From the NCBI GenBank assembly GCA_000247545.1, contig CP003316.1, forward strand, positions 1,955,233 to 2,019,232: DNA of 64,000 nt. Reading direction: 5' to 3'. Within the stretch, counting starts at the first letter, position 1, and each line of letters starts with the position of its first letter. The position numbers were made by a program, and so were the translations under genes. Of the stretch, positions 2,986 to 16,068 are shown in pieces. The notes beneath the pieces are model-generated. The model had not been told where the DNA came from. It saw only the letters and a list, made by a program, of their open reading frames with translations, and searched no databases. The stretch is from Pyrobaculum oguniense TE7 (GTDB taxonomy: Archaea > Thermoproteota > Thermoprotei > Thermoproteales > Thermoproteaceae).

Positions 2986-3708
2986 CCAGCCGTTGGCCCC
3001 TTCGACATAAGCATGGCGAGCCCCGTTGCCAAGCGGCCTTCGCACGCCACTACCAGCCCCCTCGAGTTGAGCAGGTCAAGGGCCAGGCGGTATGTGTAGC
3101 GCCGCTTTATCAGGAGGGGGGAGCACTGAATTGCGACGAGGTCCGCACTTGCCGAGACCTTCTCTAGGGCCGCCGCTGCTTTGGCCACTCTGTCGTCCCC
3201 AAAAAGCTTCAGAAGCTCGTCGTCCGGCTCCGAGGCGTCTACTGCTTCCTCGAACTTCTCCAGGGGCACAACCTCAACAGCCCAGCCAAGCTTCTCCCGG
3301 GCGGCCTGTGCTTGGTACGTCTCCGAGCCGATTAGAACCGCCTTGGCGCCCACCAGCGAGGAGGCGGTGTCGCGACTTTCTTTGCCCTTGTCGCGACATC
3401 CCCGCACTGCTTGTGGGAGGGGCAGTGGTAGGCTACTACGGGCAGACCCAGCGCCTCTATCTCGGCCTTGGCGTGGAGCACGCTGGCGAAGCCGTTGTGC
3501 TCGCCGAAGCCCAGCAACACAGCTCCGCGGGCGCCGCCTTTCTGACGGGATCAAGGGCAGCCGCCGTGGTGCCGCCAGTTGCGTGGACGATGAGGGGAAA
3601 CTTCTCAGGCTCTGGGTTTTTGAAAAACCCCACAGACTGTGATAGGCGCCGCGCCACCTCCTTCACAAATGACTCTCCATGGATGGGAGAATGTAGAAGG
3701 TAGGCCAC
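2982..3708 (-). pseudogene. decayed sugar-isomerase-like gene
   Basis: Read from 3708 downward, the protein starts MAYLLHSPIHGESFVKEVA, then shows FPLIVHATGGTTAAALDPV. The frame breaks near 3530, continues as LLGFGEHNGFASVLHAKAEI, breaks again near 3370, and ends with GAKAVLIGSETYQAQAAREK and LATGLAMLMSKGPTAG before the stop at 2982. The ATGG...HN..AS.LHA pattern resembles the N-terminal half of L-fucose/L-arabinose isomerase-like proteins. At least two frameshifts separate the parts. Its 3' end touches the decayed permease, which suggests a deletion junction near 2980. The family assignment is tentative; that the gene is broken is clear. Confidence 0.6.
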
Positions 3709-5594: not shown

Positions 5595-6208
5595 GCTTTT
5601 CAGTGCGACACAGAGCGATTGTGACAAGCCTTGAGTGAAGCCGAGCAAGCCGGCAATCTCCTTCGGCGTCAACTGAGCCATCCCCTTAAGCGTGTAGCCC
5701 CTCATGCACAGCTGGAGAGCTCTCTCCGCCTTCTCCCCAGTGAAGATGTCAAAGGCCCAGCGGCACTCCCCCGGCGCCTCGGCGTGCGGCTAAGTGGGCG
5801 GATAAGCCTTGAGCTCTTTAAGAAGCTCCTCCGCCTCCTCTTCTGTGAGGCACGCCGCTTGTAACCTCTCCGCCAGCTGGCAGTCCCCCGCCACGACCAC
5901 GAGCTTGTCCTCTATTGAGCCGAGCTCCTTAACGCTCACCGCCTTGACGCCCGGCACGCCCAGCCACTCCTCGGGCGGGCTCTGAGGGAAGACTACGTAG
6001 AGCTCCACTGCCGTGGCTAGGGCTGGGGAGACAAACCTTCCACACGCCAAAACAGCAGAACGGCGCACTTCCTCGCCTTCAGAGCGGCGTCTGCGCCCGG
6101 CTCAGCGGCTGACCTAAAAAGCTTCTCCGGCAGAGAGGCCGTAATTGAAAACGCGTCTACGTAGAGGCGGCTGAGTTGTGGAAGGCCGGTCTTGGCAAAA
6201 AGCGGCAA
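5559..6208 (-). pseudogene. decayed paralogue of the PIN/NYN-like gene at 8492-8872
   Basis: The start LSRLYVDAFSITASLPEKLF (from 6208) matches SRLYIDVFSIAASLSQSEEL of the gene at 8872. About 60 middle residues are then deleted, and the text resumes at KCAVL. A frameshift near 6030 moves into SPALATAVELYVVFPQSPPE and DKLVVVAGDCQLAERLQ, which runs to an in-frame TAG at 5790-5792. The same frame continues past it as GECRWAFDIFTGEKAERALQ and a helix-turn-helix-like LTPKEIAGLLGFTQGL, ending at TAA 5559. One deletion, one frameshift and one nonsense codon make a pseudogene the simplest reading. The intact copy at 8492 ends before the C-terminal part seen here, so the ancestral protein was probably longer. 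Confidence 0.75.
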
Positions 6209-11182: not shown

Positions 11183-12259
11183 CTAGTAATAGGCCGCGAT
11201 CCTGTATAGGTTGTCCCGCTCCGCCGGCCTAAACCCGGCGTCTCGGATAATGTTGACGACGTCTGTCTTTCTGTCGATGGGGGCCTCAGCCCTTACCCAC
11301 TCCAAGACCTTCTCTTCGTAGAGGGTCCCACCGAAGTCGTCGGCGCCGAAGTACAGCGCCAGCTGGGCGGTCTCGGGGCCTGTGGTGAGCCACCCGGCCT
11401 GTATGTGGGGGATGAGGCCGTTGAACACTATGCGGGCCACGGCGACCATCCTCAGCAGGGTGGCCGAGGTCTTGGGGTATGGGATCTTCCGCCCCAACTC
11501 GCTCGTCCCGGGCTCGAAGTTCCACGCGATGAACGCCATGAAGCCGCCGGTCTTGGCATGGAGCCGGGCGATTTTGTACATGTGCTCTGCTATGTCGCTG
11601 GGCGTTTCCACGTGGCCGTACATCATCGTGGCCGAGGACGGGATGCCGGCCCTATGCGCCTCCTCCATAATCCGGAGCCAAGTATCGCTGTCGATCTTCT
11701 TCGGCGCTATGATCTTCCTGACATCGTCGACGAGGATCTCCCCGCCGCCCCCTGGCATAGACTCCATCCCCGCCGCCTTGAGCCTCTCCAGCACCTCCCT
11801 GTAAGTGGCCCTCTCCCGCCTCGCGAGGTACTCCACCTCCAGAGGAGACAGGGCGTGGATCGCGATGTGCGGCGCCTTGGCCTTGATGGCGCGGAACAGC
11901 TCCTCGAAGTACTCAATGCCGATTTCGGGGTTGACCCCGCCCTGTATCAAAACCTGCCTAATGCCGTACTTCGCGTCTACGGCGAGGACCCTCTTCACGG
12001 CCTCCTCCACAGAGTACGCATACGCCTCAGGGTGGCGGGGCGGGCGGTAGAAGGCGCAGAAGGAGCACCCGACAACGCAGACGTTTGTGTAGTTCAGTAC
12101 CATGTTTGGTATGAAGGTGGCTAAGTCCCCATATAGCCTCGTCCTGATCTCGTAAGCCCTCCTCCCAAGCTCCCACAAGTCCGCCTTCAGTAGATCTTCA
12201 ATATAGCTCCTGCTGGGAACGTCCATGGTCTCTGCTTTTAGCATATTTAAAACATTCAT
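11183..12259 (-). CDS. mqnC: cyclic dehypoxanthinylfutalosine synthase (radical SAM)
   Basis: MqnC cyclises dehypoxanthine futalosine in menaquinone biosynthesis. The radical SAM cluster motif is CVVGCSFCAFYRPP (C-x3-C-x2-C). Family features include QVLIQGGVNPEIGIEYFEEL, HIAIHALSPLEVEYLARR and GHVETPSDIAEHM. The 358-residue length is normal. It is distinguished from MqnE (14183) by the IQGGVNP and HALSP motifs. A TATA-like ATTTAATTTTT at about 12270-12280 sits about 15-20 nt upstream of the ATG, giving a leaderless or nearly leaderless mRNA. It heads the mqnC-methyltransferase-mqnA strand. Confidence 0.92.
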   Translation of the reverse strand: MNVLNMLKAETMDVPSRSYIEDLLKADLWELGRRAYEIRTRLYGDLATFIPNMVLNYTNVCVVGCSFCAFYRPPRHPEAYAYSVEEAVKRVLAVDAKYGIRQVLIQGGVNPEIGIEYFEELFRAIKAKAPHIAIHALSPLEVEYLARRERATYREVLERLKAAGMESMPGGGGEILVDDVRKIIAPKKIDSDTWLRIMEEAHRAGIPSSATMMYGHVETPSDIAEHMYKIARLHAKTGGFMAFIAWNFEPGTSELGRKIPYPKTSATLLRMVAVARIVFNGLIPHIQAGWLTTGPETAQLALYFGADDFGGTLYEEKVLEWVRAEAPIDRKTDVVNIIRDAGFRPAERDNLYRIAAYY

Positions 12260-12367
12260 GGTACGAAGCCAAAAATTAAATAGCCGGAGGTGTGAGGATG
12301 GGGTCTACAAAATACTCTCTGAACGGCTACCCGTCCCCCTTACCACTACACCTCAATGCCCTCGCCT

Positions 12368-12514
12368 CTAGCAGATTTCCTCTGCCTCTTTTACAATTTC
12401 GCCACTGTCCACTGTTCTAGCTTTTCCTGTGGCCTTCTCTGCGGCTTTGTCGCCATGGTATATACACCTTCGCTCCTGAAATCTTGCCTCCCGCTCTCTT
12501 AGTAGTCTACGGCG
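12368..12514 (-). pseudogene. possible remnant of a small antitoxin-like gene
   Basis: A 48-codon frame without a start codon reads LLREREARFQERRCIYHGDK, then AAEKATGKARTVDSGEIVKE and ends AEEIC before TAG. The Lys/Glu-rich helical text looks like a real protein tail, comparable to VapB- or CopG-type antitoxins, but the front end is absent. It sits in the gap between mqnC and the 12.7 kb structured element, near a nucleotidyltransferase/HEPN pair. Low confidence. Confidence 0.25.
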
Positions 12515-12648
12515 TTAGGCTTGAACGACCCCTCATTCAAAATTGCGCGCAACGCCGGCTGTACACGGTGTACTTTTAAGCTTGATCACCCTATTATTAA
12601 AATGGTTAAAATAGTGAGCAAAACAGAAACGTGGAGTCCGTTTGTGTC

Positions 12649-12824
12649 CCACCCCGTCTCGGGCAGGGCGGGGTGGCCCTTGCACACGGGCCTAAAGCGG
12701 GCTTAGCCCGCCGAGGGGGCGCCAACCCTTCGGGCGCGGCCTATCCGCTCGGGCAGTACCGCTTGGGCGGATCCCGCGTCTCCGGGCGCCCGGAGGGGAT
12801 AGGGACGTGTAGAGATCCCTGCCC
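12649..12824. ncRNA. candidate structured RNA with long-range closing helix
   Basis: This very GC-rich stretch (about 70% by eye) between A/T-rich flanks has no convincing reading frame but many perfect helices. They are 12649-12656 with 12669-12676 (CCACCCCG/CGGGGTGG), 12661-12668 with 12817-12824 (GGGCAGGG/CCCTGCCC), 12697-12702 with 12706-12711, 12719-12723 with 12733-12737, 12743-12748 with 12767-12772, and the 16-bp palindrome at 12780-12795 flanked by 12171-type arms ATCCC (12771-12775) and GGGAT (12796-12800). The GGGCAGGG arm lies inside the loop of the first hairpin, so the long-range helix would make a pseudoknot or an alternative fold. On the plus strand TATA-like TTAAAATGG lies at 12598-12606. 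Rfam identity unknown; a Thermoproteaceae minimal RNase P RNA or another stable RNA should be tested. Confidence 0.5.
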
Positions 12825-12898
12825 ACAATTGATATAACATCACCGGGTCAGAGGTTGCGAGCGCCGGCTATGCTGTCAAAAATGGCGGCGAGTTATTG

Positions 12899-13231
12899 CT
12901 AACATATCTTCACAGATACGTCGATAAACTTGGCGTACCACTCGGCGTACTGCTTAGGCGTAGCGAAGTGCAACTCCACGGGCGCAAGTCTTCCGAGCGC
13001 CTCCTTCACCGCCACAGCGATCCTCGCCCTCTCTAGAGCGTCGTCGGGCGCCCCCTCGCTTATTATCAACACATCGATATCGCTGTCGGCGGCCCAGTCC
13101 CCCCTCGCGACGCTGCCGAAGACGTAGACCTTCGCATCGGGCAGATACCTCCTCACCTATTCGCAGATCCTCTCGGCGATAGCCCTCCACTCCTTAATGG
13201 CGCGGACCCTCTCAACTCCCCAATTTAACAT
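12899..13231 (-). pseudogene. MNT-type nucleotidyltransferase gene with an in-frame TAG
   Basis: From ATG 13231 the frame reads MLNWGVERVRAIKEWRAIAE, then RICE, then TAG at 13157-13159, then VRRYLPDAKVYVFGSVARGD. The nucleotidyltransferase signature is intact: GSVARGDWAADSDIDVLII, with the two aspartates of D-x-D. In relatives the segment across the stop is continuous, so GAG to TAG is a likely nonsense change. Translation could restart at GTG 13156, giving 85 residues with the whole signature. The gene overlaps the HEPN gene end by about 20 nt; together they are the usual MNT/HEPN toxin-antitoxin pair, in which MNT modifies and silences the HEPN RNase. Confidence 0.7.
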
Positions 13232-13595
13232 ACCTCTCCACGAAGGCCTTCGCCACGTCCACTAAATGCTCCACGATATCCCTCCTGTACTCTCTCGGTA
13301 GGTACCTGGCGCCGATGTACGCGTCCATCATAATCTCTATCCCGTATTTGTTTTCAATGTAGAAATCCCATATCTCGGGCATGTGTTCCCTGATCAATTC
13401 AAACAAGGCTTTCAAATCGCGGGTGTAGGGGTAGTTGCCGAAGTCGCGGGCTAGCAGATACTTCAGCGCTAGTTGTACTGCCTGCTCGGCGTGGAACGCC
13501 GCTAGATCCGTCCTGCCCGCTCGCAAATCGTCCTGCGCCGCTTCCAGAAATTCCAGCGCCCTCCTCCTCAAAAACTCCACCTCGCGCCTTCCCAC
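13212..13595 (-). CDS. HEPN-domain protein (partner of the nucleotidyltransferase)
   Basis: The protein is 127 residues from GTG 13595. It has the HEPN helical core: EFLRRRALEFLEAAQDDLRA, then AAFHAEQAVQLALKYLLARD, the usual antigen-like AE.A..LALK.LL stretch. The RxxxxH RNase motif of toxic HEPN proteins is not obvious, so it may belong to the small-molecule/regulatory HEPN group. The start is chosen because a TATA-like ATTAATA at 13618-13624 is about 25 nt upstream; the frame is open further up to 13736 but that text is not family-like. It is co-transcribed with the MNT gene. Confidence 0.78.
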   Translation of the reverse strand: MGRREVEFLRRRALEFLEAAQDDLRAGRTDLAAFHAEQAVQLALKYLLARDFGNYPYTRDLKALFELIREHMPEIWDFYIENKYGIEIMMDAYIGARYLPREYRRDIVEHLVDVAKAFVERYVKLGS

Positions 13596-13739
13596 AATTT
13601 CTGTCGGCAAGGGGTTATTAATAGTAATGCGCCCTAGACGTGGCGACGTACGGGGGCGCAACAAGGGAGGCTTTGGAAGAGCCGAGGATGCGGCTGAGGC
13701 TTCGAGGTGGGGATTAGGCCGGTGTGGCTGGGACAATAG

Positions 13740-14130
13740 AAGAGGCGACTGTGAATGGCGTCGCGGTTAAAATTGTAGACTTCGAGGCGTCTTTCAAAGA
13801 CGTGAATGTGTCATGTAGCTTATCCGCCGAGCCCTGCAAGCCGAGGGTCGCTACGAAGAGGTAGATGCGGTGGAGAGCAGGACTCTACCGCGACGTGGAG
13901 CAAAGTGCAATAACCCACGCCAGCGTGGGGACGGATAGGCTGGACGAGACAGCCGCGTGGATAGCCGTTACAGTGCCGGAAGGCGAGAAGAGAAGGACAG
14001 GATAGCCGAAGCCGCGACTAAAGGCTACATCCTCACATTTGGCAACTCGCTAACCTTGACTAAGCACGACAATGCTCTGTTAGATTGTGTTATGAGGTGC
14101 AAAGCTTCGACATACATCCATCACAAGGTT
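13740..14130 (+). other. gap with gene debris, no intact gene
   Basis: Short protein-like runs appear in different plus-strand frames: ATVNGVAVKIVDFEASFKDV and SCSLSAEPC near 13750-13855, RDVEQSAITHASVGTDRLDE and TAAWIAVTVPEGEKRR near 13890-14005, and DRIAEAATKGYILTFGNSLT near 13998-14055. They could be pieces of one decayed gene. I do not recognise it. Confidence 0.35.
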
Positions 14131-14163
14131 TTTCACACGATGTGGTGTGTGAAATTTTATATA
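14131..14163 (+). promoter_or_regulatory. palindromic operator next to the mqnE TATA box
   Basis: TTTCACAC (14131-14138) and GTGTGAAA (14147-14154) are perfect inverted arms with an 8-nt spacer. The TATA box TTTTATATAG follows at 14155-14164 and lies about 24 nt before the GTG at 14183. A dimeric repressor or activator bound here would cover the BRE region of mqnE. Confidence 0.55.
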
Positions 14164-14182
14164 GTGATAAACGAATCAGTGC

Positions 14183-15262
14183 GTGCCCGGCGTCCAGGAG
14201 GTTGTCGAAATGGCTGAAAGGGGCTTAAACCGCTCAGATGCCCTTTACCTCTTGCGCGAAGCGGACGTCTTCACCTTGGCCAAAGCCGCCGAGGAGCTGA
14301 CGCGGAAGTACTACGGCGGCGTTGTGACCTTTGTCAACAACGTTGTGATCAACTACTCGAACGTATGCGTGGCCAAATGCCCCATCTGCGCCTTCTACAG
14401 GCTCCCCGGCCACGGGGAGGGCTATGTGAGGAAGCCGGGGGAGGTGGCGGCGATGGTGGAGCGCTTCGCCAAGGAGCGCGGCGTGACGGAGCTCCACATA
14501 AACGGCGGCTTCAACCCCTTCCTGACGCCGGAGTACTTCGATGAGCTCTTCCGCGAGGTGAAGAGGAGGGTTCCCCGCGTGGCGATAAAGGGTCCCACCA
14601 TGGCTGAGGTGGACTACTACGCCAAGCTGTGGCGCGTCTCGCGGCGGGAGGTCCTATCCCGCTGGAAAGAGACGGGGCTAGACGCCATTTCGGGCGGCGG
14701 CGCCGAGATATTCGCAGAGGAAGTCAGGAAGGTGGTTGCCCCCCACAAGATATCTGGCGAAGAGTGGGTTGAGATCGCCGAGTTGGCCCACAAGATGGGC
14801 ATACCCAGCAACGCCACCATGCTCTACGGACACGTGGAGAAGGAGGAGCATGTGGTAGACCACATCTTCCGCGTCAAGGAACTCCAGGAAAGGACTGGGG
14901 GCCTCCTCCTCTTCATCCCCGTCAAGTTCAACCCAGAGAACACGGAGCTCAAGGCGAGGGGGGTCGTCGTGAGGCCGGCCCCCTCCACTTACGACGTGAA
15001 GGTGGTGGCCATAGCGAGGCTGATCCTAGGGGACAAGCTTAAGGTGGCTGCCTACTGGCTCTCTGTGGGCAAGAAGCTGGCCTCCACACTCCTGCTGGCG
15101 GGCGCCAACGACTTGGTGGGCACTATGTACAACGAGGCTGTGCTCACCTCGGCCGGGGCGAGGCACAGCGCGTCGGTGGAGGAATTGGCAGAAATTGCGA
15201 GAGAGGTGGGCAAAACACCTGCACTGAGGGACACATTCCACAGAGTGCTGGCCTACTTGTAG
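14183..15262 (+). CDS. mqnE: aminofutalosine synthase (radical SAM)
   Basis: MqnE joins 3-enolpyruvyl-benzoate to SAM-derived adenosine, making aminodeoxyfutalosine for menaquinone. The cluster motif is CVAKCPICAFYRLPG (C-x3-C-x2-C). VTELHINGGFNPFLTPEYFD and RVAIKGPTMAEVDYYAKL are the MqnE forms of regions that differ in MqnC. The 359-residue length is normal. GTG at 14183 is chosen because the TATA box is about 24 nt upstream; ATG 14210 is an alternative. A palindrome upstream suggests regulation. Its 3' end overlaps the FHA gene on the other strand by 10 bp. A futalosine hydrolase or later pathway genes are not in the window. Confidence 0.92.
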   Translation: MPGVQEVVEMAERGLNRSDALYLLREADVFTLAKAAEELTRKYYGGVVTFVNNVVINYSNVCVAKCPICAFYRLPGHGEGYVRKPGEVAAMVERFAKERGVTELHINGGFNPFLTPEYFDELFREVKRRVPRVAIKGPTMAEVDYYAKLWRVSRREVLSRWKETGLDAISGGGAEIFAEEVRKVVAPHKISGEEWVEIAELAHKMGIPSNATMLYGHVEKEEHVVDHIFRVKELQERTGGLLLFIPVKFNPENTELKARGVVVRPAPSTYDVKVVAIARLILGDKLKVAAYWLSVGKKLASTLLLAGANDLVGTMYNEAVLTSAGARHSASVEELAEIAREVGKTPALRDTFHRVLAYL

Positions 15263-15644: not shown

Positions 15645-15989
15645 GTGGATGTAAGAGAGTTGATCGAGATGCAGCTCGCGTTCTCCAAGGAGAGGTTCCC
15701 CCGGTTCTGGGTAATAGAGGACGAAAAAGACCTCGTCCTCAGGCTTGAGTACCTCACCAACGCCCTGGCCGGCGAGGTGGGAGAGGCTGCAAATTTGGTC
15801 AAAAAGGCTGTGCGGAGCACCGTCTACGGTCACGGCGATGTGAAGCTGGAGGATGTAAGGGAGGCCCTCGAAGAGGAGATCACCGACGTCTTCATCTACA
15901 CTTTAACAATAGCCGGGCTCCTCGGCCTAGACCTCGAAAAGTCGTACCTAGCCAAGCTGGAGAAGAATAAGAGGCGGTTTACGCCGTAG
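15645..15989 (+). CDS. MazG-like nucleotide pyrophosphohydrolase
   Basis: The 114-residue all-alpha protein shows the metal-binding pattern of MazG-type NTP pyrophosphatases: GEVGEAANLVKK (E-x2-E) and LEEEITDVFIYTL (E-x3-D). Such enzymes hydrolyse non-canonical or excess NTPs to NMP and PPi. The GTG at 15645 lies about 24 nt after the TATA-like TTATATG at 15619, so the transcript is probably leaderless. No operon partner downstream. Confidence 0.85.
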   Translation: MDVRELIEMQLAFSKERFPRFWVIEDEKDLVLRLEYLTNALAGEVGEAANLVKKAVRSTVYGHGDVKLEDVREALEEEITDVFIYTLTIAGLLGLDLEKSYLAKLEKNKRRFTP

Positions 15990-16068
15990 AGGAACCGGAG
16001 CCCCCCTCATAGGCGGCGCCTCGGCCGTCTCTGGGGCCGATCCTGCCTTGTATAAAAAAGGCGCTGGC

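What the first reader, a model, noticed from the sequence alone, without database searches (positions are those of the whole stretch)
12649..12824. GC-rich element able to form a pseudoknotted RNA
The closing helix 12661-12668/12817-12824 uses the loop of the hairpin 12649-12656/12669-12676, and at least four further perfect helices lie between. GC content jumps sharply against A/T-rich flanks and no reading frame fits. A missing housekeeping RNA of this lineage (for example the minimal RNase P RNA) is one candidate; an undescribed RNA is another. I could not match the RNase P conserved blocks.
Basis: partly seen in the sequence, partly recalled or inferred. Interest (0 to 1): 0.72.

Follow-up and report, generated by a model that had tools for sequence, protein, structure and literature searches.

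The report
Solo TnpB-transposon guide-RNA copy
The GC-rich stretch is a stand-alone copy of a structured RNA that forms the right-hand end of a transposon in heat-loving Pyrobaculum archaea and most likely serves as the guide RNA of the transposon's TnpB nuclease, a relative of CRISPR Cas12; this RNA family is not in Rfam.

Summary
The structured element is real, but it is not RNase P, and its last helix is not part of it. Window 12629-12806 (+) is one of about 49 copies (E <= 1e-3, six genomes) of an RNA family absent from Rfam. Nine helices are supported by covariation across 46 copies. In 8 of 11 intact transposons of one TnpB clade the RNA lies on the same strand 205-403 nt downstream of tnpB. 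At three transposon insertions that a sister genome lacks, the transposon's right end falls at or within 8 nt of the RNA's 3' end, so the sequence after the RNA is flanking DNA: the geometry of an omegaRNA (reRNA) and its guide. The TnpB model matches Cas12f/TnpB structures and keeps three invariant RuvC acidic residues, with Asp in place of the usual Glu. The window copy has no tnpB; it lies in a 1.9-kb insertion between two divergent genes nearly adjacent in relatives. RNase P RNA (type T) lies elsewhere in the genome. Best reading: a solo omegaRNA-like copy, probably a remnant or non-autonomous element. Expression, TnpB binding and cleavage are untested.

The parts
12606..12613 (+). TATA-like box (TTAAAATA), candidate promoter of the RNA
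   Evidence: An A/T-rich TATA-like motif lies at about this distance upstream in many copies (GTTAAATA / TTCATAAATA types). No transcription data; inferred.
12629..12806 (+). omegaRNA-like structured RNA (conserved block)
   Evidence: Model R1, 132 bits, E 1.8e-35 in the genome search, 1.6e-36 among loci. Conservation among copies stops abruptly after about 12806. The window sequence is one of the 15 on which R1 was built.
12649..12676 (+). Hairpin S1 (12649-12659/12666-12676, loop CGGGCA)
   Evidence: Helix 1 of A3: 7 of 8 pairs with both-side changes, 94% of cells paired.
12675..12692 (+). Hairpin S2 (ggccc/gggcc)
   Evidence: Helices 2-3 of A3.
12697..12711 (+). Hairpin S3 (gcgggc/gcccgc)
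   Evidence: Helix 4 of A3, 95% of cells paired; many other copies carry a longer S3 with an extra hairpin (helix 5).
12732..12780 (+). Stem S5' (12732-12739/12774-12780) enclosing the 12-bp hairpin S5 (12743-12754/12761-12772)
   Evidence: Helices 6-8 of A3; S5 differs strongly in sequence from other copies yet still folds.
12780..12795 (+). 3' hairpin (ctccgg/ccggag)
   Evidence: Helix 9 of A3.
12802..12806 (+). 3' terminal GGGAC; equivalent of the GGGGGC/GGGGAC end that coincides with the transposon right end
   Evidence: In three insertions elsewhere in the family the right-end junction lies within 8 nt of this position.
12807..12826 (+).
   Evidence: Sequence after the RNA end is unrelated between copies; guide role inferred from known TnpB systems.
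12260..14182 (.). Insertion (RNA copy plus HEPN/MNT genes) between two divergent radical-SAM-type genes 11183-12259(-) and 14183-15262(+)
   Evidence: In G006, G002, G004 and G008 the two genes are only about 50-110 bp apart.

Best explanation
The element is a solo (tnpB-less) copy of the omegaRNA/reRNA of a Pyrobaculum TnpB transposon. In intact elements the RNA forms the right end, 205-403 nt downstream of tnpB, and the DNA just beyond the insertion becomes the 3' guide. TnpB, made in this genome by two intact genes elsewhere, would bind the RNA scaffold and cut DNA matching the guide, for example a chromosome copy that lost or never had the element, which favours keeping the transposon. The window copy lost its tnpB or spread as a non-autonomous element; it may still be transcribed from its own TATA-like box and act with TnpB in trans. 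Shown: structure with covariation, linkage to tnpB, coincidence of RNA end and transposon end in relatives, insertion context, Cas12f/TnpB-like fold. Inferred: transcription, binding, guiding, cleavage, and any activity of the window copy itself.
For: Dispersed copies in the genus and family. RNA downstream on the same strand of 8 of 11 intact tnpB genes of the clade, 205-403 nt away, and tnpB C-terminal relics next to several other copies. Covariation: 90% of cells paired, 174 both-side changes against 55 +- 5 shuffled and at most 48 in slid controls. Insertions absent in a sister genome: G004 element missing in G002 (L033 1-2931 and 6041-6119 contiguous there, RNA end at 2940); G002 element missing in G004 (L095 flank 1-1034 at 95%, RNA end at 1036, other flank from 3530 at 96%); a third right-end junction with RNA end at 2874 and flank up to 2872. 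TnpB: PF07282 over cut-off, NF040570 guided_TnpB E 2e-11 though below its cut-off, ISDra2 TnpB E 1.6e-5, AlphaFold pLDDT 85 matching Cas12f 4.8e-12 and TnpB 8iaz, 8h1j. Invariant D180, D272, D352 in 21 of 21 sequences. More distant Pyrobaculum/Thermoproteus tnpB genes (about 40% identical) carry GC-rich sequence directly after their stop codons, ending in the same AAAGGGGG / GATAGGGGGAC signature; three of them match model R1 weakly at that position.
Against: No RNA-seq or biochemistry available here. RuvC-II Glu is Asp in all members, so cleavage activity is uncertain. The window copy's left end and its tnpB are not identifiable. Two of the 11 intact tnpB genes (L090, L091) have no such RNA downstream and a third (L097) only a divergent GC-rich region. 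No TnpA transposase was identified. The alignment used for covariation was fitted to the model, although the slid controls fail clearly. At one of the three junctions (L092) the sister genome is not a clean empty site: 1.08 kb of other sequence lies between the flanks.
Confidence: 0.86

Rival explanations
1. The window copy is only a decaying transposon end with no RNA function left (same family assignment, no present activity).
For: No tnpB relic or defined left end; some other copies in the family are clearly decayed (tnpB fragments, truncated RNAs). It sits alone in an intergenic insertion.
Against: All main helices are intact, including a 12-bp S5 hairpin of different sequence from other copies; a TATA-like box is present.
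Confidence: 0.45
2. The structure acts as DNA, not RNA: a folded transposon end recognised by a transposase on single-stranded DNA, as IS200/IS605 ends are.
For: It is at the transposon end; hairpins there are typical of IS200/IS605 (own knowledge).
Against: 178-206 nt with nine covarying helices is far larger than known end hairpins (own knowledge); G-U pairs are frequent (for example pair 237/312 is GU in 26 of 46), which fits RNA better than DNA; no Y1 transposase was identified in the elements read.
Confidence: 0.12
3. A housekeeping RNA such as type T RNase P RNA or SRP RNA.
For: Size and GC content fit.
Against: RNase P type T is elsewhere with 215 bits; no Rfam family reaches its gathering score here; multi-copy and transposon-linked.
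Confidence: 0.01
4. A solo guide RNA kept for host benefit, used in trans by TnpB (regulation or defence).
For: More RNA copies (13) than intact tnpB genes (2) in this genome; some solo copies are shared at the same site by sister genomes (L164/L168, L170/L172).
Against: Shared flanks are about 95% identical, so guide conservation is uninformative; no target was tested.
Confidence: 0.15

Closest known systems
omegaRNA / reRNA of TnpB (ISDra2 and other IS200/IS605 elements)
   Same: Structured RNA at the transposon right end, same strand and downstream of tnpB, 3' end at the element boundary so that flanking DNA is the guide.
   Different: Known ones overlap the 3' end of tnpB and are processed from its mRNA (PMC10278001, PMC12817955); here the RNA starts 205-403 nt downstream with its own TATA-like box, and many copies stand alone. 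Not an Rfam family.
RAGATH-18-derived reRNA of IS607 TnpB (PMC11061315)
   Same: Structured RNA in the intergenic region just downstream of tnpB.
   Different: 13 nt from tnpB in the case studied there, IS607, mostly gut bacteria; no Rfam match here.
Haloarchaeal sotRNAs (RF02656, RF02657; PMC12558985)
   Same: Archaeal TnpB-linked guide RNAs.
   Different: They overlap the coding sequence; no match of these families to the loci scanned here.
RNase P RNA type T (RF02357)
   Same: Length about 200 nt, Pyrobaculum.
   Different: Separate gene elsewhere in this genome.

Membership tests
TnpB omegaRNA/reRNA | Same strand and downstream of a tnpB gene | tested here: met
   8 of 11 intact tnpB genes of the clade; not met for the window copy itself, which is solo.
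TnpB omegaRNA/reRNA | RNA 3' end at the transposon right end, guide = flanking DNA | tested here: met
   Three right-end junctions by comparison with sister genomes; inferred by homology for the window.
TnpB omegaRNA/reRNA | Conserved secondary structure | tested here: met
TnpB omegaRNA/reRNA | Binds TnpB and guides DNA cleavage | not testable with these tools
   Needs biochemistry.
TnpB omegaRNA/reRNA | Expressed as discrete RNA with about 15-20 nt guide | not testable with these tools
   No RNA-seq on hand; the Pyrobaculum small-RNA paper (PMC3388794) is not held.
TnpB nuclease (linked protein) | RuvC acidic triad and C-terminal zinc ribbon | tested here: met
   D180, D272, D352 invariant and the Cys pairs conserved in 21 sequences, but Asp instead of Glu at RuvC-II; fold match.
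RNase P RNA type T | Match to RF02357 | tested here: not met
   Absent here; found at G000:C1:2039224-2039431.
RAGATH-18 / sotRNA / any Rfam family | Rfam gathering score | tested here: not met
   No hit on the window element or on the copies in 14 other loci; only unrelated Pyrobac-1 genes nearby.

The most novel reading that the evidence does not exclude
A new class of independently transcribed, trans-acting guide RNAs in hyperthermophiles: many solo RNA loci, each with its own promoter and guide, serve a few TnpB nucleases with a D-D-D active site, a CRISPR-like arrangement of dispersed guides without arrays.
Probability: 0.15. Interest if true: 0.85.

Novelty: new variant of a known kind. 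Interest (0 to 1): 0.5.

Why it matters
It defines an undescribed guide-RNA-like family tied to a TnpB clade in organisms growing near 95-100 C, with three transposon insertions that map the RNA 3' end to the element end. It explains a recurrent GC-rich repeat in Pyrobaculum genomes, offers a candidate hyperthermostable compact nuclease with a changed RuvC residue, and makes the question whether solo guide RNAs act in trans directly testable.

Tried and rejected
Rfam at gathering score and at E up to 10: nothing credible. RNase P type T: elsewhere. tRNA: none. Coding: no conserved frame. RNAalifold's alternative long-range helix (5' CCCCC with mid GGGGG): left open; the C-runs and G-runs allow several alternative closings (5' C-run with the 3' GGGGGC, or the C-run before the 3' hairpin with the 3' end), which the alignment does not resolve, so they were left out of model R1. 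tnpB relic upstream of the window copy: none found. AlphaFold of the 183-aa accessory protein was low confidence (pLDDT 52).

Full report
Observation. The stretch 12649-12824 is GC-rich (0.75-0.77 against 0.42-0.53 around it) and folds better than shuffled sequence on the + strand (z -2.96).

Identity. A DNA search of 41 genomes found the element repeatedly in its own genome and in a few others. The record is Pyrobaculum oguniense TE7: the chromosome length 2,436,033 matches PMC3558965. A covariance model R1 built from 15 copies, the window's included, finds 49 places at E <= 1e-3 in six genomes of the family (13 in the window's genome, 9 in G006, 12 in G002, 7 in G004, 5 in G017, 3 in G015). 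Neither the window element nor the copies in 14 sampled loci match an Rfam family.

Structure. On 46 copies (alignment A3) 90% of cells form standard pairs and 174 cells show changes on both sides, against 55 +- 5 in shuffles and at most 48 when partners are slid. The alignment is fitted to the model, which favours it, but the slid controls fail clearly. The conserved block in the window is 12629-12806.

Linkage to TnpB. One copy in the window's genome lay beside a gene matching PF07282. Of 11 intact tnpB genes of this clade read in five genomes, 8 have the RNA on the same strand, 205-403 nt downstream. L090 and L091 have none downstream; L097 has only a divergent GC-rich region ending in GAAAGGGGGGC. 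Several further copies have short C-terminal tnpB relics upstream. The window copy has none. More distant tnpB genes (about 40% identical) in G003, G009 and G016 have GC-rich sequence starting directly after the stop codon and ending in the same signature; three match R1 weakly at that place. Matching contig lengths suggest P. islandicum, P. neutrophilum and T. tenax (from memory).

Transposon boundary. Sister genomes G002 and G004 allow three comparisons. The G004 element in L033 is missing in G002: flanks L033 1-2931 (98%) and 6041-6119 (97%) are contiguous there and the RNA ends at L033:2940. The G002 element in L095 is missing in G004: flanks 1-1034 (95%) and 3530-3700 (96%) are 8 nt apart there and the RNA ends at 1036. 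For the G002 element in L032/L092 the right flank reaches 2872 and the RNA ends at 2874, while 1.08 kb of other sequence separates the flanks in G004. So the right end of the transposon is the 3' end of the RNA, and what follows is flanking DNA. This is the layout by which TnpB omegaRNAs acquire guides (established knowledge of ISDra2-type systems; PMC8612924 and PMC10278001 are the relevant papers, of which only abstracts were seen here).

Protein. The 380-388 aa protein matches PF07282, NF040570 guided_TnpB below cut-off and ISDra2 TnpB. Its AlphaFold model (pLDDT 85) matches Cas12f and TnpB structures. Three acidic residues are invariant in 21 sequences, the middle one Asp where ISDra2 has Glu. 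Whether it cuts is unknown.

Context of the window copy. The 1.9-kb stretch 12260-14182 separates two divergent radical-SAM-type genes that are about 50-110 bp apart in four relatives, so the copy sits in an insertion, together with HEPN and MNT genes. A TATA-like box lies at 12606-12613, as in many copies. All main helices of this copy are intact.

Verdict. A solo copy of an omegaRNA-like guide RNA of a TnpB transposon. Family assignment is well supported; function of this copy is open. RNase P is excluded.

Noticed in passing
L092:2660-3208 (-), also L091, L094, L095, L096, L166, L181: Transposons of this family in G002, G004 and G015 carry a second gene (up to 183 aa) upstream of tnpB or in tnpB-less elements. 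It has no Pfam or NCBIfam hit, but its conserved core resembles GIY-YIG nucleases and a low-confidence model has UvrC GIY-YIG domains as top matches (prob 1.0, E 0.02). A possible mobility nuclease.
   Followed up: partly
L032, L033, L095: The spacer between tnpB and the RNA resembles sequence near the other end of the same elements, in direct and inverted orientation; possibly transposon ends.
   Followed up: no
window 12899-13156 (-): The MNT nucleotidyltransferase next to the HEPN gene (13212-13736 -) appears to have an in-frame TAG just before its listed start (read by eye); the pair may be damaged.
   Followed up: no
window 12562-12592: A 31-nt stretch with a palindrome-like GTACACGGTGTAC and a TATA-like box recurs at 90% identity in G010 (L036) without the RNA.
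   Followed up: no
window 15987-16047 (-): PyrR209 H/ACA sRNA (RF02807, 74.7 bits).
   Followed up: no
G003 (whole genome): 42 matches to this TnpB in one 1.8-Mb genome, an unusually heavy load.
   Followed up: partly
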